Shown: positions 3,520 through 28,239 of the stretch, one piece after another
Numbering within the stretch: position 1 is the first letter of the stretch
Layout of the letters: every line of letters begins with the position of its first letter
DNA from: Tuwongella immobilis
GTDB taxonomy: Bacteria > Planctomycetota > Planctomycetia > Gemmatales > Gemmataceae
Assembly: GCF_901538355.1 (NCBI RefSeq)
Contig: NZ_LR593887.1
Coordinates: forward strand, 2,890,920 to 2,954,919
Length of the DNA stretch: 64,000 nucleotides
Direction of reading: 5' to 3'
Position numbers and translations under genes: made by a program
Notes under the pieces: generated by a model
The model's database searches: none
The model's input: only the letters and a program-made list of their open reading frames with translations
What the model was told of the DNA's origin: nothing

Positions 3520-4587
3520 ATGCGCTCCGCACGCCGATTGCCGTTGTTGGCAGCAATGGTCTGGATGACGATTCTTGGCTCGCTGTCGGCACAAACCGAC
3601 AAGCCGACGCCGTACAACGACCCCAAGCCGAAGCGGTATGACCTGACCAAACGGGCCAGCGAAATCGATCCACGCGCCAAAGAACACCCCGAAATCGGCT
3701 TTCTCTTCAAAGATGCCAAGGGAAAGGTGATGGATCTGCAGCATGCCACCGTCGATACCAGCGTGGCACCGCAAGGCAAGCTGGTGATTTGGCTGATGGA
3801 TCACAACGCGGCACTGTTTCAGCGCGTCGCCAGCTACGGATTGCATGGAATCCAAGTGCATTACGCGAACAAATGGTTCGGCATGCTCAAGCCGGAAGTC
3901 CGCGACGATGGCAGCAGTCTGGGCAAGATTCGACTGGAAGCCGCCACCGGAGACGACATCACGCCCATCGTCACGATTCCGCAGCCCGATAGCCTGAAGG
4001 AACGCTCGTTGCAGTTTGTCAAATGGTTGGCCAAGGAACATCCGCAGGGGAAATGGGGGCAGTTTCTCACGAGTGACGGCAAGGATTTACGCTGGGACAA
4101 GGTGATTCTCGCTGGGGCATCGCACGGCTCGACCACTGCTGCACGCTTTGCCAAGCATCAAAAGGTGGACCGCGTCGTGATGTTCTGTGGTCCCCGCGAT
4201 CAACTCGATTCCTGGCAAGCGTTACCCTCCGCGACTCCCGCCAATCGCTTCTTCGGTTTCTCGCATGTGCTGGATACCGGCTGGTCGGGCGATCATTACT
4301 GCCGATCGTGGGAAATGCTGGGGCTGACCGAATTTGGGCCGATCGTCGATGTGGATACCACGCCCGCGCCGTTTGGCAATTCCCGTCGATTGACCACGAA
4401 TGCGGATGTGATGAAGAATGTGAATCGAGCGCATTCGTCGGTCGTGCCCGGCGGCGCGGCCGTCAAAGATGCCAAGGGGAAATTCATTCACGAAGCGGTG
4501 TGGAAATATCTATTCCTGCACCCGGTCGATTCGGTGGGCAAGCCCGTGGCGGCGGACCCGGAATGTAAAAAGAATCTGAAGAAGTAA
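3520..4587 (+). CDS. Secreted alpha/beta-hydrolase-like protein
   Basis: A 355-residue protein with a signal peptide (1 to about 25, cut near SLSAQ). GASHG at 199-203 is a nucleophile elbow (G-x-Ser201-x-G) preceded by a KVILAG strand, the usual layout of a serine hydrolase of the alpha/beta fold. Acidic and His candidates for the triad lie in the last third (DTGWSGDHYC, RAHSSVVP). The region after the signal peptide is polar, and a strand KLVIWLMDHN precedes the core. The substrate cannot be told. It somewhat resembles planctomycete proteins annotated as BPSS1187-like hydrolases, which I could not check. The start is supported by AAAGGA 7 nt before ATG. It ends one base short of the convergent DUF1501 stop, leaving no room for a separate terminator. 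Confidence 0.7.
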   Translation: MRSARRLPLLAAMVWMTILGSLSAQTDKPTPYNDPKPKRYDLTKRASEIDPRAKEHPEIGFLFKDAKGKVMDLQHATVDTSVAPQGKLVIWLMDHNAALFQRVASYGLHGIQVHYANKWFGMLKPEVRDDGSSLGKIRLEAATGDDITPIVTIPQPDSLKERSLQFVKWLAKEHPQGKWGQFLTSDGKDLRWDKVILAGASHGSTTAARFAKHQKVDRVVMFCGPRDQLDSWQALPSATPANRFFGFSHVLDTGWSGDHYCRSWEMLGLTEFGPIVDVDTTPAPFGNSRRLTTNADVMKNVNRAHSSVVPGGAAVKDAKGKFIHEAVWKYLFLHPVDSVGKPVAADPECKKNLKK

Positions 4588-8748: not shown

Positions 8749-9240
8749 CCCGCGCCTCCCTCATCGAGCAATTACCACAACGGATTCGCATGCGTTCGTA
8801 TGGATCCCCGAATTAATCCTCGCGGAACCCATGAGATCGTTTCATGATGCGAAATGATCGAAAATCGATGAATCGATCCTCGGCGTGGCTGAAATCGGGG
8901 TATGGATTTTTTTCCAGAAACCCTGCCCGCGCAATCCGCAAAATCCGCATCATCGCTCGGATTCCGATAATCGCCTGAAAAACTCGCCGAGTCTGCCAGG
9001 AAAGTCAGAAATCTTGTCGGTATTTTAGGCGGGGAATCGCCCCGAATGGACAGATCCTGATTGTGGTTGGCGGAAAATCAAAATGGTTCGGTGCATTTTC
9101 CGAACTGCTTCTGAATCGTTGTTGTGCCGTCAGGTAAATTGCTTGACAGAGCAAGTTGCGGACGGAACTGACGTGCGTGAATCACTTGTGTTTGTTCATT
9201 CGCTTGTTTGTTGCGAAATCTTTGCGGGAATAGGTGCTCC
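8749..9240. other. 492-bp gap upstream of the first giant gene
   Basis: No coding potential seen. It holds a GC hairpin CGGGG-AATCG-CCCCG (9030-9044). A TTGACA hexamer at 9143-9148 lies 92 bp before the giant's start, but the sequence 17 bp downstream (AACTGA) is a poor -10, so I do not call a promoter. Since the flanking gene is transcribed the other way, promoters for both genes should lie here. Confidence 0.5.
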
Positions 9241-12200
9241 ATGACCACGGAACCATCGCGTTTTCGATCATCTCGGTTGAAATCTCAGCGTTCAGCGTGG
9301 CGATTGGGCCACGACTTGGAGAAGTTGGAAGACCGCGTCACGCCAGCGGTTACCGCAGTGGCGGGGGGTGAGTTATCCATCGATCTGAATGCGGTCGGCG
9401 AGACGGTGAACATCACCACCGTCGGCTCCGATATCGTGCTCACCGGTAGCACATTCACCGGCGCGGGCAGCACCTTTTCCGCGGGTTCGATCAACAAAAT
9501 TGTCTTCCTGGATAGCGGTACCGATCAAGTCGCTCAGACGGTCAACTTTCTCAATGCGCTGACCTTATCCGGTGGGGTGGCAGGCACTGGCGTCGAATTT
9601 GTCAACTTCAAATCATCGGTCATCACCACCGGCACGGCCGGAGTAAGCGTCATTGCGCCGCAGCAAGTGATCGTTTCCTCCAAGGTGACAGGTGGCGATG
9701 GCGGCGTGAATCTGGTGGCACTGGGGGCCAGCAATTCTTTCAACACCGATGGCATCATCGTTCAAGGTGGCGCGACGGTGTCCGCAACCGGAACCGGAAA
9801 AGTCACCCTCAACGGGAAAGGTGCCGGGACCGGGGCGACCAATTTCGGCGTGGTCATCACCGGGACCAATAGCAAAGTGAGCTCCAGTAGTGGCGATGTG
9901 ACCATCGATGGCACCGGGGCAAATGGCAGTCGCGCCAACTCGGGCATTGTCATCGACACCAACGGCTCCGTCGTAGGCGGTGGCGAGGTCAAACTCAATG
10001 GATTTGGCGGCTCGACGGCAGACTTCAATCACGGCATCTTCCTGTCCAACGGGGCCAAAATTACTTCGACGAGCCTTACCGCCAAAGTGTATGTCACCGG
10101 GATCGGCGGCGGCACCACCGAAGACAATACCGGCGTCTGGATGGGCAACGATGGCGTTCAAATCCTCACCGGCGGCGGCCAACTCTTTGTCAAAGGAACC
10201 GGTGGCGATGGGACGAATTTCAATTATGGATTGTTGATCGGTAAAGGGACACTGATTCAAGCTGGTGGAATGGGCGACATGTCCATCACCGGCGTGGGAC
10301 TGGGAAGTGGCGAGTTCAATCTGGGGATCTTCGCCGAAAACGGCGGCACAGTGACCTCCAGCGGCGGCAATGTGGACTTGCTCGGAATTGGTGCGGATGG
10401 CACACAAGGCAACAGCGGGGTCTTCATTGTCGGATCAACCACCAAGATTACCGCAGGTGGGACGGGCAACGTCACGGTCACTGGCAAAGGCGGCAACGGT
10501 TCAGGAACGGACAATGATGGGGTGAACCTCATCGCAAATACTCAGATTACCTCCAGCGGCGGAAATGTCACGGTTATCGGCACGGGCGGCGGCGGGAGCG
10601 GGAACCAGAATGTCGGCGTCTTTCTGGATAAAGGAACGCAGATTCTTGCGACCGGCGCGGGCAACACCAGCGTCACCGGCCAAGGGGGGACTGGCGCGGG
10701 GAGTTTCAATCACGGCGTCTGGGTCTCGGGGATTGGCGCGAAAATCACTTCCGATACGGGCAAGGTCACTGTCACCGGCACCGGCGGCGGCAATGCCGGG
10801 TCAGGCAGCGAAAATCATGGCGTGTTAGTCGATGGCGGCGGGAAGATCCTCTCCGGCGGCGCGGGGTCGGTCACGGTCACCGGCAAGGGCGGGGCATCCT
10901 CGGGGAATTTCAACCGCGGCGTTTGGGTGGTCAACCTCGATTCGACCATCACTTCCGGCGGGGGCAATGTCAGCGTCATCGGCACGGCTGGAGCGTCATC
11001 CACCGGCGATGATAACCATGGGGTGCTTCTGGGTGACTTTGCCTTCGTCAGTGCGGTCGGAACCGGCAGCGTATCCGTGCAAGGAACGGGCAAAGGAACC
11101 GGGGAATTCAACGACGGAGTGCTGATCGAAGGCAAGGCGACGATCAATTCCGGGGGTGGCGATGTTTCGATCACCGGCACTGGGGCAGCCGGCACCAGCA
11201 ACAATGTCGGCGTCCGCATTTCGGGAGGCGGAACCGTCATTACGGCCGGTGGCCTCGGCAAGGTCAGTGTCACCGGAACCGGCGGCTCGGGATCGGGGAC
11301 GAATAATTCCGGAATCGAGATTGTTGAGTTTGGGGTCATTTTCTCATCCGGCGGCAATGTCGCGGTCACGGGGACGGCGGGCAATTCGGGTGCCGGGATC
11401 TTATTGGACAAAGCGACGGTTAATCCCGGCGGAACCGGGACATTGACCCTCATCGGCGATGCGTCGGGTAGTTTCGAGGGGATCCGGATCACGACGTCCA
11501 CGGTAGTCGGCGATAACTCGACCGAGATTACGCTGATTACGGATAGCCTGCTGGTCGATGGAACCAGTTTCGTTCGCGCGGGCACCAGCAACACGGCATT
11601 GATTCAAACCTTGACCGCCGGAACGAAGATCGACCTCGGCGGCGCGGACGTGCTGACTGGCTCACCGTTGACACTCGGACTGACCGATGCCGAGTTGGAC
11701 CGAATCAGCGGTCGGGTGCTCTCGATCGGAAAAACGGGCATCGGCGGCAGCGGCACGGTCACGGTGTCATCGGCGATTTCCCCCGGTGGAACGACTCGGT
11801 TAGTGATCGAGACCGCAGCCAACGTCACCGGCTCGGCAGTGATTACCGAAACGAATCTGGCCATCAACGCTCAGACGGGAATCAATCTTACCGGGCAAAA
11901 CTTGGTGAGCTTGGTGGCTCTGCTCAATGCCACCTCGGGCGGTATTACCTTCGTGGATGCCGATGGGTTCGTTGTCGATGACTTTGAATTTTCTTCGCCT
12001 TATCTGACCATTGAAGCCCCCAATCAAGCGATCGATCTCCAAGCGACGACTGGCACCATCACGGTGAATGACTCGATTCTCGCCAATGGAAGTAATGGCA
12101 AAGTGAGCATCGTGGCGGGGCAGTCCGTCGTCGTATCCGCTGGCATCTCGGCTGGGGATTTAGGCGTCACGGTCGAGGGGCAAGGAAAAGATCAGACACT

Positions 12201-15200
12201 GAACTCCATTGGCGTGATCGTTCAAAGTGCGGGCAAGATTGCGAGCAGCGGCTCTGTCAAGGTCATTGGCAAAGGCGGTGGGAAGGATGCCAATAACCAC
12301 GGTGTGTCGGTTCGAAGTGGTGGGGCGATCGTTGCGAAGACTAGCGGCACCACACTGGAAGTGATTGGCACTGCCGGGAATGGCACGACGGCCAATTACG
12401 GCGTGAATCTGGAAACCAATGCCGTCATCACCGGCGAAGCGAATGCGTCGGTGATTGTCAGCGGTACCGGGGCGAATGGCACCTCCGGCAATTACGGGGT
12501 CCGCCTCGCCACTTCGTCCTTGATCGTCACGGTCAACGGCGATCTGACCATCAATGGCACCGGTGGGAATGGTTCCGGGTCGGGAAATATTGGCGTTTTG
12601 GTCAGTTCCAGCCTGATCGAAACCACCGCTGGCACGATCTCGATCAATGGGACTGGCGGGAAGGGGACTTCCGACAACGATGGCGTGAATGTCTCGGCCA
12701 ACTCGACGATTCGCTCCATCGGCTCCGGATCGGTGACGGTCATCGGCAAAGGCGGTGACGGCAGCAGCGACAATAATGACGGGGTGGCATTGGAGGGGGC
12801 AAACGCCAAGATTGCCTCGGCAGGGGGGAATGTCATCGTCACTGGCACCGGTGGCGCGGGACTGGGCTTGAATCACGGCATCCTGATGAAGAACGGGTCG
12901 TTCATTACCTCGGCAGGGGTGACCGGGAAAGTCGATGTCACCGGCACCGGCGGCGGCGATGGCACTGGTTCAAACAACTCGGGACTGTTCATCGATGGCG
13001 GCACGATTGCTTCTGGTGGCGGCGATACCACCGTCATCGGCACCGGCGGCAACGGCACCTTCGCCAATGTCGGCGTCAACCTGCTTGGCGGCGGCAAGAT
13101 TTCTTCCGGCGGAACCACTTCGAAGGTGATCGTCACCGGCACCGGCAAGGGAACCCAGGTCAACAACTACGGCGTCGCAGTCATTGGCAAGGGCACGCAG
13201 ATCACCTCCGGCGGCGGCGATGTCACCGTGACTGCCACCGGCGCAAATGGCACCGACACCAATCGTGGGTTGATCGTGGTCGATCAGGCCAGCATCACAT
13301 CGGGCGGACCCAACGGCAATGTCACGGTCACTGGCACCGCACGCGGCACCGGCGGTGGGGCATACGGCGTCAATCTCACCACCAACGCGACCATCACTTC
13401 CGGCGGCGGAACGGTGAGTGTCACCGGCACCGGCGGCAACGGGACGCTGGTCAATCACGGGGTGTATCTGCAATCGGGATCGAAGATCACTTCCGGCGGC
13501 GGTGCGGTCACGGTCATCGGGAAGGGCGGCGATGGAACCTCCACGTCCAACTTCGGGGTGGAACTGACGGGGACGGATACCACGATCACCTCCGGCGGTG
13601 GCGCGGTCACCGTCACCGGCACGGGGGGCGATGGGATCAACTCCAACCACGGTGTCGTCCTTTCGAATGGGGCGGCGATCACTTCCGGTGGTGGTGCGGT
13701 GAGCGTCACTGGAACCGCAAGCGGAATTGGGGATAGCGGATTTGGTGTTTATATCGCGGGGAGTTCCACGCAGATTTCGACGGGCGGCGGGAACCTGACC
13801 ATCGTCGGGACTGGCGCGGCGGGGACGAATTTCAATTACGGCGTGCATCTGGCCGGCGGCACCATCACCTCCGGCGGACCGAGCGGCGCGGTCAGCATCA
13901 CCGGCAGCAGCAAGGGGATCGGGGCCGGTAACGTCGGGGTCTATCTGGTCAGTTCCGCGAGTCAGATCACCTCAGGTGGTGGGAACGTGACGGTGATCGG
14001 CACCGGCGGCACGGGGATCGAATCGAACTCGGGCGTCTCGGTTTCCGGTGGGGCAAGCATCATCGCTGGCGGCACCGGCTACGTTTCGGTCACCGGAACG
14101 GGCGGCACTGGCACCCAGTTGAACAATTTCGGCGTCAGCTTGGACTTCTCCTCCACAATTTCCTCCAACGGCGGCAATGTCGCAGTCACCGGGACGGGGG
14201 GCAAAGGCTTTGCCTCCAGCTATGGGGTGTCGGTCGTTGGCGGCTCGCGCATTTCGGCAGGCGGAGATGGCACCGTCACGGTTGAGGGGACCGGTGGCGA
14301 TGAGGGATTTGGCAACTACGGCATTGTCCTCAACTCCGCCTCCGAAATCACCTCGTCCGGCAATGGCGATGTGCTGCTCAAAGGCACCGGCGGCACCGGC
14401 ATCAACACCCATTATGGAATTCTGATCGACAACGAAAGCACCGTTAGCTCTGGTGGTCCATTGGCCGATGTGACGCTCATCGCACAAGGCGGCGATAGCG
14501 GAGCCAGCAACTTGGGGCTGCTGTTGCGTGGCGATAGCCTGATTACCACCGGTGGGGGCAATCTGCTGATTCAGGGGACTGGTGGCGACACCGCCGGGGC
14601 GGGATTCGGCATCTGGGTACCCGCCGGGACGATTACGGCAGGCGGAACCGGCACCGTAACGCTCGAGGGCAAAGGCGGCGTCGGCGGAACATCGCTGCAA
14701 ATCGGCGTCTTCATCGAAGGGGCGAACTCGGTCGTCACCTCCAATGGCGGCGATGTCTCGATTACCGGCACGGGTGGGTTCAGTGGCTCGAAAAACCACG
14801 GAGTCGCGGTCACTTTCGGCGCTGAAGTTTCCGCAGGCGGAACCGGCAAGGTCACCGTCGTCGGCAAAGCCGGTGATGCGGTCAACAGCGAAAACCACGG
14901 CGTGTTTCTGGACGGAACGGGCACGCAGATCACCTCCGCGGGTGGCGATGTCCGCGTGGAAGGGACCGGCGGCGGCGGGCCGATGAGCAATCATGGCGTG
15001 TCGATCTCGACCGGAGCGATCATTACCTCCGCAGGCACGACGGCGGCCATCACGGTCATCGGCACCGCGGGCGGGGATCTCCGGGCAAATCATGGCGTGT
15101 TCATCACCGGCTCGAATTCCGCGATTGTCTCCAGCGGCGGCAATGTCTCGGTCACGGGGACTGGGGGAACAATCGGCGGTGGCAACGTCGGCGTCAACCT

Positions 15201-18200
15201 CCGCAATGGCGCGAGCATTCGCACCATTGGGGCGGGGAACATTCTCGTCGATGGCACCACTGGCGGAACGCTGGATATCAATCAGGGGGTCTTCCTGAGC
15301 GATTCCAATTCGCGAATCGCGGCGGAAGGCACCGGCAACGTCACGGTCATCGGCAAGGGGGCCAACGGCACCGATGGCAACGTCGGGGTCAACCTGGCAA
15401 GCTCGGCGAAGATCACATCCGCTAGCGGCAATATCAGCGTCACCGGCACCGGCGGCAATGGCTCTGGGGCGGTCAATGCCGGCCTCGCGGTCGGGCTAAA
15501 CAGCCTGATTTCGGCGGGCGGCGACGGCAAGGTCACGCTCCTGGGCACCGGCGGCAGCGGAACCTCGCTCAACTTCGGCATCGCCGTTGTCGATGGCGGG
15601 AAAGTCCTGACCAACAACAACGCCATCGACCTGACCGCGGTTGCCGGCACAGCCTCAATCGGACTCCACGTCGGCATCGACGGGGTGATCCAAGCGGGGA
15701 ATTCGCCAATCACCATCGCTACCGACAGCATCGACATCGATGTGAGCGGCTCGCCGGGCAGCATCACCGCTTCGACCAAACAAGTGACGATTGTCCCAGT
15801 GACGGCTGGCACGCGATTCAATCTGGGCGGCGCGGATGGGCTGACTGGCTCGCCGCGAACGCTTGGACTCACCGACGCCGAACTCGACCGAATTGGTGCC
15901 AATCTGCTGGTGCTCGGCGATGCCACCGCGGGCGAAATTGAGATTAGTAACGATCTGACGCAGTCGCGATCGTTGACGCTGATTACCGCGCAAGGTCTCA
16001 TCGGCATCGGCGATTTGGCGATCGGAACGGCAGCCGGCTCCAAGCTGACGATTCAACAAGCCGGGGCCACCTCGTATGCGGGCACGCTCGGCGGAGTCGC
16101 TGCAAACGCCAACAACTTCGCGGTAGTCCTCACCGGCACCGGCACGTTGAACCTCACTGGCTCGCACACCTACTCCGGCACCACCTCGGTCGATGCAGGC
16201 ACGCTGCGGGTGAATGGTTCGCTCGGCTCGTCTGCGCTCACAACGGTGAAATCCGGAGCAACGCTCGGCGGGGCGGGCGAACTAGACGGCCCGGTGACGG
16301 TTCAAGCTGGCGGAACGCTGGCGCCGGGAAATAGCCCGGGCATTCTCTCGACCGGGAAACTGAATTTGGTCAGCGGCTCGACATTCCTGGTCGAAGTCAA
16401 TGGGCCGAATCCGGGAACCGATCACGATCAAGTCGAAGTGACGGGCACAGTCAACCTGAACGGCGCAATTCTCAGCGCCAGCGGCACCATTGCCAGCAAT
16501 CCCGGCCAAACCATCATCCTGATTGACAACGATGGCACCGACCCGGTCATTGGCACCTTCGCCGGGCTGCCAAACGCTTCGACCGTGGTGATCAACGGAG
16601 TGACGTTCTTTATTCGGTACAATGGTGGCGATGGCAACGATGTCGAGCTGTTGCAGTCGAATATCAACGTCTTTTTCGACTCCGATGGCAATTTGGTCTT
16701 CCTGGATGGTCTCGGGAACGTCAACGACAATGTCACGCTGACCAACGATGGTACCAATGTTGTCATCAGCAATACGGCACAAACGCTGTTCACCGACATT
16801 GCCGGGGCATCGGGTTCGGGGACGGGGTCGATCATGCTGCTCCGCAGTCAGATCGCCGGCAAATCGATTCTGATTCAGGGGGCAGGCGGCGACGACACGC
16901 TGACCGTGGAGTATGGCGCAGGCATCTATCAGCACATCGTTCAACTCATTGGCGGATCGGGGGACGACACACTGCGAACGGCGGGTACAGGTGCAGCCGA
17001 ACGCGATGTGGTCTTCATCGGCAATTTCGGGAATGACACCGTTGAACTGACCGGGTCGGTGATTCTCAACGGCGTCAATTTGCTGGCTGACCTGCAAGCC
17101 GATGCCGCGACGGGAGATGCCGACAATATTCGCTTCGTCGGTGGGAATTTCCGCCTGCTGGGAGCGGGGGCGGCGACGCTGACCGCTTCGCAAAGCATTT
17201 CGCTGGATGGAACATCGAAGCTCACCAGTGTCGATGGCGATCTCGTTTTGAAGGCCAACCTGCAACCGACAGCCACGACCGGCGATTTCGGCGGCATCGT
17301 CGTCGATGGCGGGCGGATTGTCACCAGCGGCCAGGGATCGATCACGCTGCAAGGTCGCGGCGGCAATGGCACTTCTGATCAGATTGGCGTGCATCTGCTC
17401 AATAGCGCGGTGGTCGATTCCAATGGCCAAGGCGATGTGAATATCACCGGTTTCGGTGGTGCGGGAAGTGGCGATCGGCATTCCGGCGTGGTCGTCGATT
17501 CGGGGCTGATTCGCATTACCGATGGCGCCATCACCGTCACCGGATTTGGCGGCGGCACGGTGAACTCCAACAGCTCGCGCGGGGTGTTCCTGACCAATGC
17601 TGGGGCGATTCGCGCTGCCAATACCAGCACCATTCAAGTCACGGGCACCGTCGGTAATAATACAAACGGTCGAGGCAACGTCGGTGTGTCGCTGGTCGGC
17701 CCCGGCACGTTAATCATCTCCTCGGATGGCGACATTCTCGTCACGGGGACCGGCGGGGCGGGGATCGATAACAACGACGGGGTGCGGCTGACCAACGGAG
17801 CGCAAATCGCGGGCGATGACACCGAAGCGGACATCATCGTCAATGGCTTCGGCAATGGCAGCGGCTTGTCGAATCGCGGGATCAGCCTCGACCTCGCGGA
17901 TACCGCCATCACCACACGCGGTGGGAACCTCACCCTCAACGGCACCGGAGGCAACGGCTTCTCCACCAATATGGGGGTCTTTCTCTCCTCGGGTGCCAAA
18001 CTGTCCACCCAGGGCACCGGCGAACTCACCGTCACGGGCACCGGACGCGGGACCGGTATCGAGAATAACGGCATCTTCCTCAACGGAACAGATACGCTGA
18101 TCTCCACGCAGAATGGCAACCTGACCGTGACTGGCACTGGTGGGAACGGGACGAATTCCAACCACGGCCTGGTGATGCAGAATCAGTCGGGGATTCAGGC

Positions 18201-21200
18201 CGGCGGAATCGGCAAGTTGACCATCAACGCCACGGGGGGCGGCACCGGCAATAACACGTCGGGGCTGCTCATGAACGGCAAGGGCACCTCGATTCAATCG
18301 GCCGATGGCGATTTGACGATCATCGGCGATAGTGGCATCGGCCTGCAGGATCGCTATGGCGTTTACGCATACAGTGGCGCGAAAATCTTCACCACGGGTG
18401 CAACGGCCAAAATCGCCATCAACGGCACCGGTCGGGGAACCGCTGCCGAGAATGTCGGGGTCTGGTTGGAAGATGCTGGTACAGCGCTGACCTCCAACGG
18501 CGGCAATATCGAAGTCATTGGCATGGCCGAAGGCACCAGCACCAACCGAGGCGTTTTGGTCGCACGTGGGGCCGTGATTTCGGCGGGCGGCATGGGGAAC
18601 GTGACCGTCAACGGAACCAACGACGGAACCGATACCAAGAACTACGGTGTGCTGGTCAGCGGCGATCTCTCGTTGGTGACTTCCGCAGGAGGGAATGTTG
18701 CGATTACCGGGGTTGGTGGAACGGGATCGATCTTGAATATCGGTGTCGCGGTGGCAACTTTCGCGAAGGTTTCTGCGGGTGGAATGGGCACACTGACCAT
18801 CACCGGCACCAGTCGAAGCACTGGCGATGAGGGCTTCGGCATTCGCATCTATGATTCGAAAGTGGTGGTCAGCACAGCAGGTGGCCCCATCATCCTGCAC
18901 GCGACGGCAGCGGACGGCAATCCGGATCTTCAGATCGGAGGATTCGCATCGATTGATGCGAAGGCGTCGGGCAATGTCACCATCCATGCCGATTCGATCG
19001 ATCTCGAATTTATCGGCAATCGTGGCAAAATCGATGCGGGCACCGGCACGGTGGTCATCCAACCGCGAACGGCAGGTACCAAGGTTGATCTCGGCGGCGC
19101 GGATGTGCTGACCGGGCCGAAGACGCTGGGCCTCTCGAACGGTGAGCTGAATGTGATCACCGCTGGAACGCTAGTAATCGGCAATGCGACCACCGGTGGA
19201 ATCGGTGTTAGCAGTGACGTTGTCACGCCGAAGAATCTGACGCTCATTACCGCCGATGGCGTGAGCGGCACGGCGAATCTGAGTGTCGGAGCGGCAACGC
19301 CAACCACGCTGACGATCAACCAAGCCGGTAAATCGACGTTTGCAGGGGTTCTGGGTGGAACGGGCACGAATGAGAACCAATTTGGCATCGTTCTGACCGG
19401 CGGCGGGACGTTGAATCTCACCAATGCCAGCACATTCACCGGCCCGACTGCGATCAACGCTGCGACGCTCCTAGTCAACGGCCAAGTGACGTCGCCCACG
19501 ACCGTCAATACTGGCGGCACCCTCGGCGGCAGCGGTACCGTCACTGCCCCAATCGCGGTGGCGACGGGTGGCAAACTGACGCCGGGCAATAGCCCTGGAA
19601 TTCTCGCATCCGGAAATCTATCACTCGCATCTGGATCGACCTTCATCGCGGAACTCAATGGGACCACTCCCGGCACCGATCACGATCAGGTGGCCGTGAC
19701 CGGGACGGTGAACCTGGGCGGGGCGACGCTGGCGGTTAGCGGTACGATTTCAGGCAACCCGAATCAGCAAGTGATCCTGATTTCGAATGATGGAACCGAT
19801 GCGGTGATTGGTAGCTTCGCCGGTCTGCCCGAAGGGGCGATCGTGCTGGTCAACGGCCTGAATTTCAGCGTCTCCTACGTCGGCGGCGACGGCAACGATG
19901 TCGTGCTGCGGCAAGAGGGAATTCCGCAATCGCTGATCTTCAATCTGCCGACCACCACCGGAACGTATGGTGATTCGCCGATTCGTTTGGCTGCGACGCC
20001 TGGTGAAAGCGGCAATCCGGTGACCTTCACGGTCGTCAGTGGTCCGGGGGTGATCGTCGGAAATGTGCTGACGATTACCGGAGCCGGTCCGATCGTCGTG
20101 GCCGCAACTCAAGCGGGAGATTCGGTTTACGGCGATACCACGGTGACTCGCACGCTCACGGTGTTGCCGGCACCGCTGACGATTCGCGCGGATGATTTTG
20201 CGATCGATGCCGGGCAGCCGTTGCCGACCTTCACGGTCAATTACAGCGGCTTTGTCAACGGCGAGGGGCCGAGCGTCGTGAGCGGGCTGATTGTCGGCAC
20301 CACTACCGATGGCAGCACGGCGGGCAGCTACGCGATTCTGCCCAGTGGAGCGAGTGCGGCCAACTATGCCATCACCTTCGTGCCCGGAACGCTCACGGTG
20401 CGATCGACGGTGGAGCCGATTTTCGAGCTGCCGAGTTTCACTGTCGGTGCCGGCGTCGGGTCGATCCCGGAAGTGGTGCTGTACAACGCCAACGGCACCG
20501 AGCGGGTGCGATTCCTCGCATATGAAGAATCGTTCCGCGGCGGCGTCACGGTGGCGACTGGCGACCTCAACGGCGACGGAATCCGCGACTTTGTGACCGG
20601 CACCGGCAACGGCGGTGGCCCACGCGTGCGGGTGTTCAACGGCATCGATGGATCGGTCATCGCTGATTTCCTGGCCTACGAAGAAACCTTCCGTGGTGGC
20701 GTCTGGGTGACGATCGGCGATTGGGACGGTGACGGAACCAATGAAATCATCACCGGTGCGGGAGTCGGTGGCGGTCCACGGGTGCGAATCTTCTCGATGG
20801 ACGGCACCGAGCAGGCGAATTTCTTCACAGCGGAAGATACACTGCGGCAAGGGGTTACGGTCGCGGCGGCGGATCTCGATGGCGACGGTGCCAGCGAAAT
20901 TGTCACCGGCGTTGGCAGCGAGGTGCTGATTTTCGCCGGTAAGACATTGTCGCTGGTGCGACGATTTGACAGCGGAATCTCCGGCCCAGTGACGGTGACG
21001 GCCAATTCGAACGAATTGTTCGTCGGCTCCGGCCCCGGCTCGACGGAACTGCGGGCTTTCACCCCCGAAGGCATCGCAATCACGGGTGGCACGGCATTCG
21101 AGGCGACTTTCGTCGGCGGCGTGCGTGTGGCATTCACCGACCTGAACGAAGACGGCATCTCGGAACGGGTGATCGGGGCTGGCCAGGGCGGTGGACCCCG

Positions 21201-21288
21201 AATTCGCGTCGTCGATACCGACCTTGCCGAGGAGCTGAATTTCTTCGCCTTCGATGATGAACAACGCGGTGGGGTGTTCGTCGGTTGA
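9241..21288 (+). CDS. Giant secreted repeat protein (4,015 aa) with LEDRV N-terminus and FG-GAP C-terminus
   Basis: ATG 9241 (AGGTG just upstream) begins a 4,015-residue protein. LEDRVTPA at 28-35 is the planctomycete export motif. Three blocks of Gly/Thr/Asn-rich repeats of about 34-38 residues follow, probably parallel beta-helix. Each block ends in a hinge LGGAD...LTG...LGL. Autotransporter-type beta-strand units (GTLNLTGSHTYSGTTSV, ATLGGAG, LAPGNSPGIL) occur at about 2297-2474 and again at about 3384-3557. A DSDGNLVFLDG domain follows the first. An Ig/MBG-like pair (PLTIRADDFAIDAGQPLPTF) sits at about 3560-3722, then FG-GAP repeats (GDLNGDGxxDxVTG) to the end. There is no autotransporter barrel, PEP-CTERM or LPXTG signal. 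It is probably a cell-surface or matrix adhesin. The frame is clear, the function is inferred. Confidence 0.92.
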   Translation: MTTEPSRFRSSRLKSQRSAWRLGHDLEKLEDRVTPAVTAVAGGELSIDLNAVGETVNITTVGSDIVLTGSTFTGAGSTFSAGSINKIVFLDSGTDQVAQTVNFLNALTLSGGVAGTGVEFVNFKSSVITTGTAGVSVIAPQQVIVSSKVTGGDGGVNLVALGASNSFNTDGIIVQGGATVSATGTGKVTLNGKGAGTGATNFGVVITGTNSKVSSSSGDVTIDGTGANGSRANSGIVIDTNGSVVGGGEVKLNGFGGSTADFNHGIFLSNGAKITSTSLTAKVYVTGIGGGTTEDNTGVWMGNDGVQILTGGGQLFVKGTGGDGTNFNYGLLIGKGTLIQAGGMGDMSITGVGLGSGEFNLGIFAENGGTVTSSGGNVDLLGIGADGTQGNSGVFIVGSTTKITAGGTGNVTVTGKGGNGSGTDNDGVNLIANTQITSSGGNVTVIGTGGGGSGNQNVGVFLDKGTQILATGAGNTSVTGQGGTGAGSFNHGVWVSGIGAKITSDTGKVTVTGTGGGNAGSGSENHGVLVDGGGKILSGGAGSVTVTGKGGASSGNFNRGVWVVNLDSTITSGGGNVSVIGTAGASSTGDDNHGVLLGDFAFVSAVGTGSVSVQGTGKGTGEFNDGVLIEGKATINSGGGDVSITGTGAAGTSNNVGVRISGGGTVITAGGLGKVSVTGTGGSGSGTNNSGIEIVEFGVIFSSGGNVAVTGTAGNSGAGILLDKATVNPGGTGTLTLIGDASGSFEGIRITTSTVVGDNSTEITLITDSLLVDGTSFVRAGTSNTALIQTLTAGTKIDLGGADVLTGSPLTLGLTDAELDRISGRVLSIGKTGIGGSGTVTVSSAISPGGTTRLVIETAANVTGSAVITETNLAINAQTGINLTGQNLVSLVALLNATSGGITFVDADGFVVDDFEFSSPYLTIEAPNQAIDLQATTGTITVNDSILANGSNGKVSIVAGQSVVVSAGISAGDLGVTVEGQGKDQTLNSIGVIVQSAGKIASSGSVKVIGKGGGKDANNHGVSVRSGGAIVAKTSGTTLEVIGTAGNGTTANYGVNLETNAVITGEANASVIVSGTGANGTSGNYGVRLATSSLIVTVNGDLTINGTGGNGSGSGNIGVLVSSSLIETTAGTISINGTGGKGTSDNDGVNVSANSTIRSIGSGSVTVIGKGGDGSSDNNDGVALEGANAKIASAGGNVIVTGTGGAGLGLNHGILMKNGSFITSAGVTGKVDVTGTGGGDGTGSNNSGLFIDGGTIASGGGDTTVIGTGGNGTFANVGVNLLGGGKISSGGTTSKVIVTGTGKGTQVNNYGVAVIGKGTQITSGGGDVTVTATGANGTDTNRGLIVVDQASITSGGPNGNVTVTGTARGTGGGAYGVNLTTNATITSGGGTVSVTGTGGNGTLVNHGVYLQSGSKITSGGGAVTVIGKGGDGTSTSNFGVELTGTDTTITSGGGAVTVTGTGGDGINSNHGVVLSNGAAITSGGGAVSVTGTASGIGDSGFGVYIAGSSTQISTGGGNLTIVGTGAAGTNFNYGVHLAGGTITSGGPSGAVSITGSSKGIGAGNVGVYLVSSASQITSGGGNVTVIGTGGTGIESNSGVSVSGGASIIAGGTGYVSVTGTGGTGTQLNNFGVSLDFSSTISSNGGNVAVTGTGGKGFASSYGVSVVGGSRISAGGDGTVTVEGTGGDEGFGNYGIVLNSASEITSSGNGDVLLKGTGGTGINTHYGILIDNESTVSSGGPLADVTLIAQGGDSGASNLGLLLRGDSLITTGGGNLLIQGTGGDTAGAGFGIWVPAGTITAGGTGTVTLEGKGGVGGTSLQIGVFIEGANSVVTSNGGDVSITGTGGFSGSKNHGVAVTFGAEVSAGGTGKVTVVGKAGDAVNSENHGVFLDGTGTQITSAGGDVRVEGTGGGGPMSNHGVSISTGAIITSAGTTAAITVIGTAGGDLRANHGVFITGSNSAIVSSGGNVSVTGTGGTIGGGNVGVNLRNGASIRTIGAGNILVDGTTGGTLDINQGVFLSDSNSRIAAEGTGNVTVIGKGANGTDGNVGVNLASSAKITSASGNISVTGTGGNGSGAVNAGLAVGLNSLISAGGDGKVTLLGTGGSGTSLNFGIAVVDGGKVLTNNNAIDLTAVAGTASIGLHVGIDGVIQAGNSPITIATDSIDIDVSGSPGSITASTKQVTIVPVTAGTRFNLGGADGLTGSPRTLGLTDAELDRIGANLLVLGDATAGEIEISNDLTQSRSLTLITAQGLIGIGDLAIGTAAGSKLTIQQAGATSYAGTLGGVAANANNFAVVLTGTGTLNLTGSHTYSGTTSVDAGTLRVNGSLGSSALTTVKSGATLGGAGELDGPVTVQAGGTLAPGNSPGILSTGKLNLVSGSTFLVEVNGPNPGTDHDQVEVTGTVNLNGAILSASGTIASNPGQTIILIDNDGTDPVIGTFAGLPNASTVVINGVTFFIRYNGGDGNDVELLQSNINVFFDSDGNLVFLDGLGNVNDNVTLTNDGTNVVISNTAQTLFTDIAGASGSGTGSIMLLRSQIAGKSILIQGAGGDDTLTVEYGAGIYQHIVQLIGGSGDDTLRTAGTGAAERDVVFIGNFGNDTVELTGSVILNGVNLLADLQADAATGDADNIRFVGGNFRLLGAGAATLTASQSISLDGTSKLTSVDGDLVLKANLQPTATTGDFGGIVVDGGRIVTSGQGSITLQGRGGNGTSDQIGVHLLNSAVVDSNGQGDVNITGFGGAGSGDRHSGVVVDSGLIRITDGAITVTGFGGGTVNSNSSRGVFLTNAGAIRAANTSTIQVTGTVGNNTNGRGNVGVSLVGPGTLIISSDGDILVTGTGGAGIDNNDGVRLTNGAQIAGDDTEADIIVNGFGNGSGLSNRGISLDLADTAITTRGGNLTLNGTGGNGFSTNMGVFLSSGAKLSTQGTGELTVTGTGRGTGIENNGIFLNGTDTLISTQNGNLTVTGTGGNGTNSNHGLVMQNQSGIQAGGIGKLTINATGGGTGNNTSGLLMNGKGTSIQSADGDLTIIGDSGIGLQDRYGVYAYSGAKIFTTGATAKIAINGTGRGTAAENVGVWLEDAGTALTSNGGNIEVIGMAEGTSTNRGVLVARGAVISAGGMGNVTVNGTNDGTDTKNYGVLVSGDLSLVTSAGGNVAITGVGGTGSILNIGVAVATFAKVSAGGMGTLTITGTSRSTGDEGFGIRIYDSKVVVSTAGGPIILHATAADGNPDLQIGGFASIDAKASGNVTIHADSIDLEFIGNRGKIDAGTGTVVIQPRTAGTKVDLGGADVLTGPKTLGLSNGELNVITAGTLVIGNATTGGIGVSSDVVTPKNLTLITADGVSGTANLSVGAATPTTLTINQAGKSTFAGVLGGTGTNENQFGIVLTGGGTLNLTNASTFTGPTAINAATLLVNGQVTSPTTVNTGGTLGGSGTVTAPIAVATGGKLTPGNSPGILASGNLSLASGSTFIAELNGTTPGTDHDQVAVTGTVNLGGATLAVSGTISGNPNQQVILISNDGTDAVIGSFAGLPEGAIVLVNGLNFSVSYVGGDGNDVVLRQEGIPQSLIFNLPTTTGTYGDSPIRLAATPGESGNPVTFTVVSGPGVIVGNVLTITGAGPIVVAATQAGDSVYGDTTVTRTLTVLPAPLTIRADDFAIDAGQPLPTFTVNYSGFVNGEGPSVVSGLIVGTTTDGSTAGSYAILPSGASAANYAITFVPGTLTVRSTVEPIFELPSFTVGAGVGSIPEVVLYNANGTERVRFLAYEESFRGGVTVATGDLNGDGIRDFVTGTGNGGGPRVRVFNGIDGSVIADFLAYEETFRGGVWVTIGDWDGDGTNEIITGAGVGGGPRVRIFSMDGTEQANFFTAEDTLRQGVTVAAADLDGDGASEIVTGVGSEVLIFAGKTLSLVRRFDSGISGPVTVTANSNELFVGSGPGSTELRAFTPEGIAITGGTAFEATFVGGVRVAFTDLNEDGISERVIGAGQGGGPRIRVVDTDLAEELNFFAFDDEQRGGVFVG
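9711..11460 (+). repeat. Repeat block 1 of the first giant (about 17 units)
   Basis: Tandem protein-level repeats of about 34-38 residues with the pattern V-x-V-x-G-T/K-G-G ... N-x-G-V ... I-T/S-S-G-G. I counted about 17 by the N-x-G-[VIL] signature. The DNA units are diverged, so this is an old array. It ends before the hinge TAGTKIDLGGADVLTG at about 11605. Confidence 0.85.
12163..15690 (+). repeat. Repeat block 2 of the first giant (about 36 units)
   Basis: The longest array of the same N-x-G-V / ITSGGG repeat, with about 36 counted units. Units between 13,200 and 14,000 share near-identical GGGAVTVTGTGG cores at protein level, suggesting more recent duplication there. It ends before the second hinge (LGGADGLTG, about 15830) and the first autotransporter-type strand unit. 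Confidence 0.85.
17281..18870 (+). repeat. Repeat block 3 of the first giant (about 16 units)
   Basis: The third array of the N-x-G-V repeat, about 16 units, before the third hinge (LGGADVLTG, about 19095) and the second autotransporter-type strand unit. With blocks 1 and 2 it makes a three-fold large-scale repeat. Confidence 0.83.
20440..21285 (+). repeat. C-terminal FG-GAP/VCBS-type repeats of the first giant
   Basis: About six repeats of roughly 50 residues built on GAGxGGGPRVRxF...FLAYEExFRGGVxVAxGDxxGDGxxxIxTG. FG-GAP repeats form integrin-like beta-propellers with calcium loops (DLNGDG, DWDGDG, DLDGDG). The same module closes the second giant protein. Confidence 0.85.
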
Positions 21289-21310
21289 TCAACTCTTGAA
21301 AATCATCAGC

Positions 21311-21351
21311 AGCCGAGTCGGATCGGGAATTGTCCTGAGTCCGATTCGGCT
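21311..21351 (+). terminator. Rho-independent terminator after the first giant gene
   Basis: AGCCGAGTCGGA (21311-21322) pairs with TCCGATTCGGCT (21340-21351), a 12-bp stem with one G-U pair, 23 bp after the stop codon. It is followed by a T-rich run (TTCCTTTTTCCATTCTTTTT). Confidence 0.8.
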
Positions 21352-21452
21352 GTGTTCCTTTTTCCATTCTTTTTCGGAACGAATTCGGCCCGGTTCCCGG
21401 CCAATGCTTCCCGAAACGCCTCCAGCCATGCACCAATGACCAAGCGGGACAA

Positions 21453-21486
21453 TTACGAGATTTCGTAAATTTACGAGATTTCGTAA
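21453..21486. promoter_or_regulatory. Tandem operator-like palindromes upstream of the DUF1348 operon
   Basis: TTACGAGATTTCGTAA occurs twice, at 21453-21468 and 21471-21486, spaced 18 bp start to start (under two helical turns). Each copy is an inverted repeat TTACGA-N4-TCGTAA. A third palindrome, TGATTG-CA-CAATCA, lies at 21520-21533, followed by another TTACGA half-site at 21535-21540. The cluster is about 150 bp before the DUF1348 start and looks like the binding site of a dimeric repressor. No regulator gene is adjacent. Confidence 0.65.
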
Positions 21487-21634
21487 TTGCGGATCTATGG
21501 AATGATTTTCCGTAACAATTGATTGCACAATCACTTACGAAAAATCGACCCGATTGGCACCGGAAATGAATTCATTGGGTTATCGCCAAGCGAGAACGTC
21601 TCCTTCGGCGAAGGTGATCCCTGGAGAATGTGCC

Positions 21635-22129
21635 ATGACCGCGCTGACGATTCCCACGACGCCCCAGTTGATCGTGCCCCCGTTCACGCTTGAGACGGCG
21701 ATTCTGAAAGTTCGGGCCGCGGAAGATGCCTGGAACTCCCGCGATCCGGAGCGCGTCTCGCTCGCCTACACGGTCGATTCCGTTTGGCGAAATCGATCGG
21801 AGTTTCCGGTTGGGCGCGAGCAAATCCGAGCATTCCTGCAACGCAAATGGGAACGCGAGTTGGATTACCGCTTGGTCAAGGCATTATGGGCATTCTCTGA
21901 GAATCGAATTGCCGTGCGATTCCGATACGAATGGCATGATGCGGCCGGGCAATGGCACCGCAGTTACGGCAATGAATTATGGGAGTTTGATGAACAGGGA
22001 CTGATGCGTCGTCGGGAAGCGAGCATCAATGATCGTCCCATTTCGGAACACGAACGGGAATTTTTTTGGCCGGCTCCCGGGCCACGTCCTGTATCGCATC
22101 CGGGAATTCCGAATGTGGACGCCGAGTAA
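21635..22129 (+). CDS. DUF1348 / NTF2-like (SnoaL-type) protein
   Basis: A 164-residue protein of the nuclear-transport-factor-2-like fold. It shows the characteristic DUF1348 segments [57 protein letters not shown] and [18 protein letters not shown], ending with a Pro-rich tail. The family makes small cone-shaped pockets; no reaction is established. There is no signal peptide, so it should be cytoplasmic. I chose ATG 21635 because GGAG lies 8 nt upstream and homology begins soon after; the frame is open further upstream from a TTG at 21554. It is followed after 58 bp by an alpha/beta hydrolase, probably in one transcription unit behind the tandem palindromes. Confidence 0.88.
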
Positions 22130-22187: not shown

Positions 22188-23219
22188 ATGACGCGGATGA
22201 TGAAGCGATTTTGGGCGATTTCGGCGACGATGGGCGTGGGAATTGGCAGTCTGTGGTTGGCACAATCGTTCCGCACGACTGCAACGGTCCGGGCCGAAGC
22301 CGGGCCGACCGAAGTGACGAGTTCTAAGCCAGCGTCGCAATCGACGGAAGATGCGGTGGTGACGTACCATACGGCGAAAATCGACGGGCTTTCGATCTTC
22401 TACCGAGAAGCGGGTCCGAAAGATGCCCCGACACTTCTGTTGCTGCATGGGTTCCCGACCAGTTCGCATATGTTTCGAAATTTGATCCCGAAATTGGCAG
22501 ATCAGTATCATGTGATTGCACCGGATTATCCGGGATTTGGACAAAGCGATGCACCATCTCACGATCAATTTACGTATACATTCGATCGATTGGCCGAGGT
22601 CATTGACAGACTCACCGAGCATCTGAAATTGAAGCGGTTCTCGCTATATGTGCAGGATTACGGGGCACCGGTGGGGTATCGGATCGCGGCGAAACATCCC
22701 GAGCGGATTCAGTCGATTATCGTGCAAAATGGCAATGCTTATGAAGAGGGAATTGACAACGATTTCTGGAAGCCGGTGAAGGCGTACTGGGCCGATCCGA
22801 AGAATTCCGAGAAACGAAACGCGCTGCGTGGCTTACTGACGAAGGACGCCACGAAATGGCAGTACACTCATGGCGTGCCGAAGCCGGAACGGATCAGTCC
22901 GGATGGGCCGCATCACGATCAACCGCTGCTGGATCGTCCCGGGAATGCGGAAATTCAATTGGATCTGTTTTTGAGTTATGGAAGCAATCCGCCGTTGTAT
23001 CCGCAGTGGCAGGCGTATTTTCGTAAGCATCAGCCGCCGATGTTGATTGTCTGGGGCAAGAATGACCAGATTTTTCCGGCGGCGGGGGCCGAACCGTATC
23101 GCCGAGATTTGAAGCAGGTGGATCTGCATTTGCTGGATGCCGGGCACTTTGCTCTGGAGAGTGCGGGGGATGAGATGGCCCAGAAAATTCGGGCATTTTT
23201 AGAAAAATCCGTAAAATAA
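22188..23219 (+). CDS. Exported alpha/beta hydrolase, haloalkane-dehalogenase/epoxide-hydrolase type
   Basis: A 343-residue protein with an N-terminal hydrophobic export segment (about 5-28). The core has the oxyanion motif [17 protein letters not shown], the strand [15 protein letters not shown] and the elbow VQDYGAPVG, where Asp replaces Ser as nucleophile. This Asp is typical of haloalkane dehalogenases, fluoroacetate dehalogenases and epoxide hydrolases. The late motifs [15 protein letters not shown] (acidic residue) and DAGHFALES (His) complete a triad. The reaction would be hydrolysis through an ester intermediate; the substrate is unknown. GAGGAGA precedes the ATG. It probably forms an operon with the DUF1348 gene, hinting at inducible processing of a small molecule. 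Confidence 0.85.
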
Positions 23220-27762: not shown

Positions 27763-28239
27763 ATGACCCCATACGGAAAGACCGCTCAAACGGCGATTGC
27801 AGCGATTAGTCGGCTTGCGGAAATGTACGACCCGGTGAAGCGGGTGAAGCTCAATTCCGCCGAGATTGCTGAGAATCGGAAAATGCCACAACCCGTTGTA
27901 GCAAAAGTGCTTACGATCTTATCGCAAGCAGGTTTGGTGAACGGCTCACCGGGACCGGGTGGCGGATATTGGCTTGCCCGCAATCCAGAAATGGTCACGC
28001 TGTATGATGTCGTTTCGCTGTTTGAACGTCAGGAAGAGAACGTCAGTTGTCCGTTCGGGCCGCATTACTGCGGGACTGGCCCACATTGCCCGATGCATTT
28101 TGATCTGCTCAAAGTCCGCGAACAGATGATTTCGTTCTTACGCGGATGCTCGCTGGCGAGGTTTGTCGGATGGAAGCCCGGTCAACCGGCGACCGACTCC
28201 CATTCGACCCGACAGTTGCCCATCTTGCCGATGATTTGA
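27763..28239 (+). CDS. Rrf2-family transcriptional regulator with three-cysteine Fe-S motif
   Basis: A 158-residue protein. The N-terminal winged helix (about 5-75) contains KLNSAEIAENRKMPQPVVAKVL and the wing SPGPGGGYWLAR, the hallmark of Rrf2/IscR/NsrR/RirA regulators. C96-x6-C103-x5-C109 (SCPFGPHYC...HCPMH) sits where these proteins bind a 2Fe-2S or 4Fe-4S cluster. The cluster would sense NO, oxygen or iron-sulfur status. The last 25 residues are family-untypical. AGGA lies 7 nt before ATG. No Fe-S assembly or NO-detoxifying gene is adjacent; the convergent sulfatase is next. Confidence 0.9.
   Translation: MTPYGKTAQTAIAAISRLAEMYDPVKRVKLNSAEIAENRKMPQPVVAKVLTILSQAGLVNGSPGPGGGYWLARNPEMVTLYDVVSLFERQEENVSCPFGPHYCGTGPHCPMHFDLLKVREQMISFLRGCSLARFVGWKPGQPATDSHSTRQLPILPMI

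What the first reader, a model, noticed from the sequence alone, without database searches (positions are those of the whole stretch)
21453..21540. Tandem 16-bp palindromes and a third site ahead of the DUF1348-hydrolase pair
Two exact copies of TTACGAGATTTCGTAA 18 bp apart, a further palindrome at 21520 and a half-site at 21535 make a dense operator-like cluster. Exact repetition in otherwise unconstrained intergenic DNA implies function. No repressor gene is adjacent, so it may answer to a distant regulator.
Basis: seen in the sequence. Interest (0 to 1): 0.5.

Follow-up and report, generated by a model that had tools for sequence, protein, structure and literature searches.

The report
Genome-private clustered palindromic protein-binding sites
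A 16-base DNA palindrome that stands twice in front of a small enzyme gene pair occurs 16 times at seven places in this one planctomycete genome and hardly ever in its relatives; it is most likely a docking site for a DNA-binding protein that has not been identified.

Summary
TTACGAGATTTCGTAA lies at 21453-21468 and 21471-21486. A degenerate third copy may start at 21535; the palindrome at 21521-21534 is background. In the window's own 6.69 Mb genome TTACGA-N4-TCGTAA occurs 16 times at seven loci, against about 0.17 expected from composition. Spacer 4 takes 16 of 22 matches over spacers 0-24, and core bases are 58 of 64 A/T. That pattern is typical of a dimeric DNA-binding protein's site. Pfam on 38 ORFs at the seven loci found no regulator beside a cluster (10 had no match). 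None of 94 other family genomes or 391 other sampled phylum genomes has more than two copies. Eight relatives with a DUF1348 homologue have none. One five-copy array lies between convergent genes and one copy lies inside a gene, so 'operator of each downstream gene' does not cover everything. Best reading: sites of an unidentified dimeric regulator with a small private regulon. Rivals: an architectural protein, or palindromic repeats without function. parS and terminator readings are unlikely. New member of a known kind; modest interest.

The parts
21453..21468 (.). palindromic site 1, TTACGA-GATT-TCGTAA, exact
21471..21486 (.). palindromic site 2, identical to site 1, 2-bp gap
21535..21550 (.). 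possible degenerate third site TTACGAAAAATCGACC (9 of 12 arm positions)
   Evidence: weak
21521..21534 (.). TGATTGCACAATCA, unrelated short palindrome, at background frequency; not counted as part of the system
21635..22129 (+). DUF1348 (SnoaL-like) gene; ATG 148 bp after site 2 (start codon is my choice)
   Evidence: PF07080 E 1.9e-65 (scanned from the longer ORF 21554-22129); ATG checked
22188..23219 (+). alpha/beta hydrolase gene, second of the pair
   Evidence: PF00561 E 4.3e-37
9208..21288 (+). giant repeat protein ORF (4026 aa, MBG_2 and FG-GAP) ending 164 bp before site 1

Best explanation
The palindromes are the binding sites of one sequence-specific, dimeric DNA-binding protein, most likely a transcriptional regulator encoded elsewhere on the chromosome. 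Each 6-bp arm TTACGA would be read by one subunit, and the A/T-rich 4-bp core would set the spacing. Tandem copies (18, 20, 32 or 46-48 bp apart) would let several dimers bind side by side. At the window locus, dimers bound 148-181 bp before the DUF1348 ATG would modulate the DUF1348-hydrolase transcript. Shown: copy number, fixed spacer, A/T core, clustering, position mostly between genes, restriction to this genome. Inferred: protein binding, dimer, regulation, and control of this gene pair.
For: 16 exact copies at seven loci of the own genome, reversed control 1; composition expectation 0.17; Poisson probability of 7 or more loci about 1e-8 at mean 0.25 and 8e-5 at mean 1. Spacer 4 takes 16 of the 22 matches for spacers 0-24, the other 24 lengths 6 in all. 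Cores differ (GATT, AATT, TTTT, AAAA, TTTC, AACT) but only 6 of their 64 bases are G or C in a genome of about 58% G+C; the next two bases outward lean to A/T. In the first three L006 units the two spacers agree at 23 of 30 bases, and in L009 at 12 of 16, while the arms are unchanged in L006 and have one change in each of two of three L009 sites; copying of a whole element would have carried core and spacer along. In 430,639 bases of this genome 192 N4 palindromes with 6-bp arms were counted and only TTACGA recurs in tandem within 60 bp, 8 of 8 pairs (seven of its 40 stretches were chosen for exact sites and 13 for near or other-spacer matches). Fifteen of 16 copies lie outside genes by ORF models and Pfam. 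Elsewhere the same word in tandem stands beside Cro/CI-type repressor genes and near DtxR/MntR-type regulators, both palindrome binders.
Against: No regulator was recognised beside a cluster (38 ORFs, 10 without a Pfam match). The largest array (L006, five exact copies) lies between the 3' ends of convergent genes and also holds decayed units (4141, 4189, 4238), so not every unit is kept; that its five exact arms agree is partly circular, since exactness was the search rule. The L005 copy lies inside a 3-keto-disaccharide hydrolase gene. Target genes share no evident function. No sigma-70 promoter match at 21250-21700. No conservation in relatives. Matches with up to 2 mismatches (131) are fewer than for the reversed pattern (266), so there is no halo of weaker sites. 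Of the nine 1-mismatch copies three are in the clusters; of the other six, four lie inside predicted ORFs and two between ORFs (L077, L081), with G- or C-containing cores.
Confidence: 0.6

Rival explanations
1. The palindromes bind a chromosome-organising or nucleoid-associated protein (Noc-like, or a private architectural factor) and not a promoter regulator; clusters act as nucleation points wherever they lie.
For: Position does not follow promoters: one array between convergent genes, one copy inside a gene. GC skew puts the origin at about coordinate 0 (one of 20 samples, L128, has the wrong sign). Loci lie 659, 872, 2130 and 2912 kb from it on one arm and about 647, 880 and 1302 kb on the other, two near-symmetric pairs, and none lies between 2.91 and 5.39 Mb around the terminus. 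This was noticed afterwards, with seven loci.
Against: Only seven loci; post hoc symmetry; no candidate protein; no exact or 1-mismatch site within 120 kb of the origin on either side.
Confidence: 0.15
2. They are small dispersed palindromic repeats (REP- or minisatellite-like) multiplied by slippage and copying, without function.
For: Tandem arrays with regular periods: 18 bp x5 in L008, 32 bp x3 in L009, 46-48 bp in L006 with decayed units; genome-private; positions at 3' ends and between convergent genes.
Against: Cores and spacers vary more than arms. No flanking sequence shared between loci beyond scattered 12-mers: 19 observed, 13.8 on average in 200 random sets, spread not computed and the two counted slightly differently. 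No other tandem N4 palindromes in 430,639 bases.
Confidence: 0.17
3. They act as RNA or single-strand hairpins (terminators or mRNA 3' structures).
For: Five of seven loci (window, L006, L008, L009, L010) begin or end about 36-164 bp beyond the 3' end of a gene.
Against: Stems are 6 bp and A/T-rich; the terminator scan of the window locus picked another place; no Rfam family at gathering score in L005-L010 and only a chance-level hit in the window (mir-753, 19.4 bits against 62). Hairpin energies were not computed.
Confidence: 0.05
4. They are the organism's parS centromere, replacing the canonical one.
For: The genome encodes a ParB-like protein at 54 kb (by eye) and has no canonical parS with 0-1 mismatches; with 2 mismatches there are two, at 1.38 and 2.59 Mb. 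The sites are 16-bp palindromes.
Against: No site with 0-1 mismatches within 120 kb of the origin. 87 of 95 family genomes (own included, some incomplete) lack canonical parS too, yet 90 of the 95 have no TTACGA site, so TTACGA is not the family's replacement.
Confidence: 0.03

Closest known systems
Sites beside Cro/CI-type (XRE) genes in Clostridia and viral contigs, and beside DUF3693 phage genes in Vibrio, with the same palindrome in tandem (L028, L033, L039, L044, L135, L138)
   Same: TTACGA-N4-TCGTAA in pairs next to an HTH_3/HTH_26 or DUF3693 gene
   Different: There the site sits beside a regulator gene. In this genome HTH_3 gives six hits (one is ParB-like), none at a cluster; in the roughly 3-kb loci around them the best match has 3 mismatches (L141, L142, L144, L145 one each; L140, L143 none)
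Paired palindromes with 32-bp period upstream of DUF4143/AAA_14 ATPase genes (L035, L043, L046, L049, L050, L051, L057)
   Same: Same arms and N4 spacer; 32-bp period, as in L009 of this genome
   Different: Those have GACC/GACTATT-type flanks and a DUF4143/AAA_14 gene next door; DUF4143 was not found in this genome
Archaeal sites near DtxR/MntR-type regulators and a ZnuA transporter gene (L053, L055, L063)
   Same: Tandem TTACGA palindromes between genes
   Different: No metal transporter or DtxR gene was recognised at the clusters here
parS (consensus TGTTTCACGTGAAACA, recalled)
   Same: 16-bp palindrome, few copies per genome
   Different: Different sequence; not near the origin

Membership tests
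Transcription-factor operator | Conserved palindromic half-sites at fixed spacing, beyond chance | tested here: met
Transcription-factor operator | Located at promoters of target genes | tested here: inconclusive
   window, L007, L008, L009, L010 lie about 10-227 bp before a start codon of my choice; L006 lies between convergent genes and L005 inside a gene
Transcription-factor operator | Bound by an identified regulator | not testable with these tools
   no regulator recognised beside a cluster among 38 ORFs
Conserved DUF1348 operator | Same site with orthologues in relatives | tested here: not met
   8 of 60 other family genomes with a DUF1348 homologue, all with 0 sites genome-wide
DUF4143-linked palindrome pair | DUF4143 gene adjacent | tested here: not met
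   PF13635: 0 of 1, own genome
parS centromere | Clustered near the replication origin | tested here: not met
   no site with 0-1 mismatches and one with 2 within 120 kb on either side of the origin
REP or mobile palindromic element | Shared sequence beyond the palindrome between loci | tested here: not met
   scattered 12-mers only, 19 against a control mean of 13.8 without spread
Intrinsic terminator | G+C-rich stem followed by T run | tested here: not met
   scanned for the window locus only; other loci by eye

The most novel reading that the evidence does not exclude
A private chromosome-organising system: a DNA-binding protein of this lineage nucleates on a few clustered palindromes irrespective of promoters, in a family where most genomes show no canonical parS, so that segregation or nucleoid layout uses unknown sites.
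Probability: 0.1. Interest if true: 0.7.

Novelty: new member of a known kind. Interest (0 to 1): 0.33.

Why it matters
It gives a clean, testable binding word for an unidentified DNA-binding protein in a planctomycete; a pull-down with this 16-mer could name the protein in one experiment. It also shows the same palindrome beside different regulator types in different phyla, so a motif match alone must not be used to name the regulator.

Tried and rejected
Looser motif: no halo above control, so it does not extend the regulon. Contexts of six 1-mismatch copies, four symmetric or A/T-core 2-mismatch copies and three other-spacer matches: of the six, four lie inside predicted ORFs. The two between ORFs were followed with Pfam: L077 lies between an amidohydrolase gene and a TPR/RNA-polymerase-alpha-CTD gene; L081 has an AraC-type regulator with a sugar-binding domain 1.1 kb away. 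That regulator is not excluded as a candidate, but its near copy (TTCCGAAACCTCGTAA) is not at its own start. Pfam was not run on the neighbours of the remaining near-matches. DUF4143 as the factor: not found. XRE genes with an S24/LexA-like tail (Pfam for L143 only): no good site in their loci. The region just upstream of L144's gene holds another long palindrome. parS: rejected as above. Rfam: nothing.

Literature: no paper of the held library contains any of four 16-mer forms of the site, nor DUF4143 with promoter and palindrom. Searches for the two arms, planctomycete operators, planctomycete parS (one paper on VirB) and the presumed species gave nothing used here. Papers were seen as search listings with abstract starts only; none was opened.

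Mended in checking: the region printed for L068, L069 and L073 is on the hydrolase side (minus-strand matches, loci in genome orientation), so absence in relatives rests on the genome-wide zero counts. One search translated four loci on the wrong strand; one search gave the right one. The gene models missed the 3-keto-disaccharide hydrolase gene of L005, which Pfam shows.

Full report
What is there. The half-site at 21535 can be read as a third, degenerate copy with 3 mismatches of 12; the sample of 240,020 bases holds 41 such places, 0.017 per 100 bp. The palindrome at 21521-21534 has another sequence and is at background frequency (0.27 such palindromes per 88 bp).

Genome-wide. The window is G000:C1:2890920-2954919 of a single-contig genome of 6,690,754 bases. 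From size and kinship I take it for Tuwongella immobilis; that is recalled, not shown. TTACGAN4TCGTAA occurs 16 times: 659444; 872001, 872047, 872093, 872282, 872330; 2129775, 2129795; 2912372, 2912390 (the window); 5388273, 5388291, 5388309, 5388327; 5810384; 6044179. The reversed pattern occurs once. Composition predicts 0.17. With the spacer free from 0 to 24 there are 22 matches, 16 of them with spacer 4. Nine copies have one mismatch; three lie inside clusters (5388345, 5810320, 5810352), and of the other six four lie inside predicted ORFs. With up to two mismatches there are 131, fewer than the 266 of the reversed pattern.

Form. The arms are invariant by the rule of the search; the core was free, and 58 of its 64 bases are A or T. 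The next two bases outward lean to A/T. Sites repeat at 18 bp (window x2; L008 x5 with one 1-mismatch copy), 20 bp (L007, where two sites form one long inverted repeat), 32 bp (L009 x3, two with one mismatch) and 46-48 bp (L006). The first two L006 spacers differ at 7 of 30 bases, the two L009 spacers at 4 of 16. L006 also holds decayed units at 4141, 4189 and 4238.

Places. Window: 148 bp before the DUF1348 ATG, 164 bp after a giant repeat ORF. L007: 226 bp before a DUF1559 gene. L008: 227 bp before a 150-aa ORF without Pfam match, 85 bp after a DUF6268 gene. L009: 112 bp before a superfamily-1 helicase gene, 36 bp after a PMT_2-type gene. L010: about 10-61 bp before an ORF of at least 3723 codons, 136 bp after an SGL-type gene. 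L006: between a small lipoprotein-like ORF and a DUF1559 gene that point at each other; DUF1559 stands on both sides. L005: inside a 3-keto-disaccharide hydrolase (PF06439) gene; one chance copy per genome is what the reversed control shows. (Also.) Start codons are my choice. Pfam on 38 ORFs at these loci (10 without match) found no transcription factor except the Rrf2 gene at 27763-28239 of the window.

Relatives. Of 95 family genomes (own included) five have any copy: own 16, the others 2, 1, 1 and 1. Of 392 sampled in the phylum (own included) 24 have any, and none but the own has more than 2. A DUF1348 homologue is found in 9 of 61 family genomes (own included; one of the others is a weak partial match); the eight others have zero palindromes. 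The hydrolase follows DUF1348 in at least L070 and L075, as read. In L071 and L072 a TetR gene lies upstream.

Elsewhere. A scan of 84,980 genomes for two copies 2-32 bp apart gave 39 stretches. Fourteen hold a gap of exactly 16 bp; seven of these stand directly upstream of a DUF4143/AAA_14 gene (L057 shows only AAA_14, as its contig ends). The other seven: L028 and L041 are in Clostridia with XRE-like genes (Pfam for L028), L034 ends at the contig end, L037 has a DUF4143 gene more than 1 kb away on the far side of other ORFs, L045 has a lumazine synthase gene, L061 has a signal-peptidase-type gene (S26) next to it, and L064 showed nothing of the kind by eye. Among other gaps, pairs stand near Cro/CI-type genes (L031, L033; L060 below the Pfam cut-off), DUF3693 genes (L039, L044), and in archaea near DtxR-type or ZnuA genes (L053, L055, L063). 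Not all 39 were tested. Five viral contigs hold such pairs; in the two that I read, L135 and L138, the pair is beside a Cro/CI-type gene. So several unrelated regulators appear beside this word, and it does not name the regulator here.

Mechanism. Fixed spacing, a free but A/T-rich core and close repetition are best explained by a dimeric DNA-binding protein, most likely a transcriptional regulator. The convergent array and the lack of a shared function keep an architectural protein or neutral repeats alive. Two pairs of loci are near-symmetric about the origin (659 and 647 kb; 872 and 880 kb; origin from GC skew); I give that little weight, since it was noticed afterwards.

Verdict. Real, clearly non-random, nearly confined to this genome in the sets searched, function inferred. 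A new member of a known kind with an unknown partner protein.

Noticed in passing
L035, L043, L046, L049, L050, L051, L057 (positions): Pairs of TTACGAN4TCGTAA with exactly 32-bp period recur directly upstream of DUF4143/AAA_14 ATPase genes in records titled Deltaproteobacteria/Desulfobacteraceae, Parachlamydiales and Gammaproteobacteria: seven of fourteen gap-16 loci. No paper of the library holds DUF4143 with promoter and palindrom.
   Followed up: partly
own genome and family: No canonical parS with 0-1 mismatches in 87 of 95 family genomes, own included, some of them incomplete, although the own genome encodes a ParB-like protein at 54 kb (L145, by eye).
   Followed up: partly
L154:18899, L156:8261 and 9824, L146:15551, L148:9158 and 9727, L120:10846: A longer repeat around TGGGACN3GTCCCA occurs six times in 240 kb about the origin and once in 418,638 bases elsewhere; pairs in opposite orientation 0.57 and 1.56 kb apart suggest terminal repeats of an IS or MITE.
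   Followed up: no
L140, L142, L143, L144: Four similar repressors with XRE head and S24/LexA-like tail (Pfam for L143; the others by eye); L144 has a 41-bp inverted repeat with 17-bp arms just upstream.
   Followed up: no
window 9208-21288 and L008:5566-8022: Two giant repeat-protein ORFs share MBG_2 and FG-GAP domains; both lie within about 1.5 kb of a palindrome cluster, and a third giant ORF (at least 3723 codons, no Pfam match in its first 1323) starts next to the L010 site.
   Followed up: no
L081:4120-5343: An AraC-type regulator with a sugar-binding domain lies 1.1 kb from a 1-mismatch copy of the palindrome.
   Followed up: no
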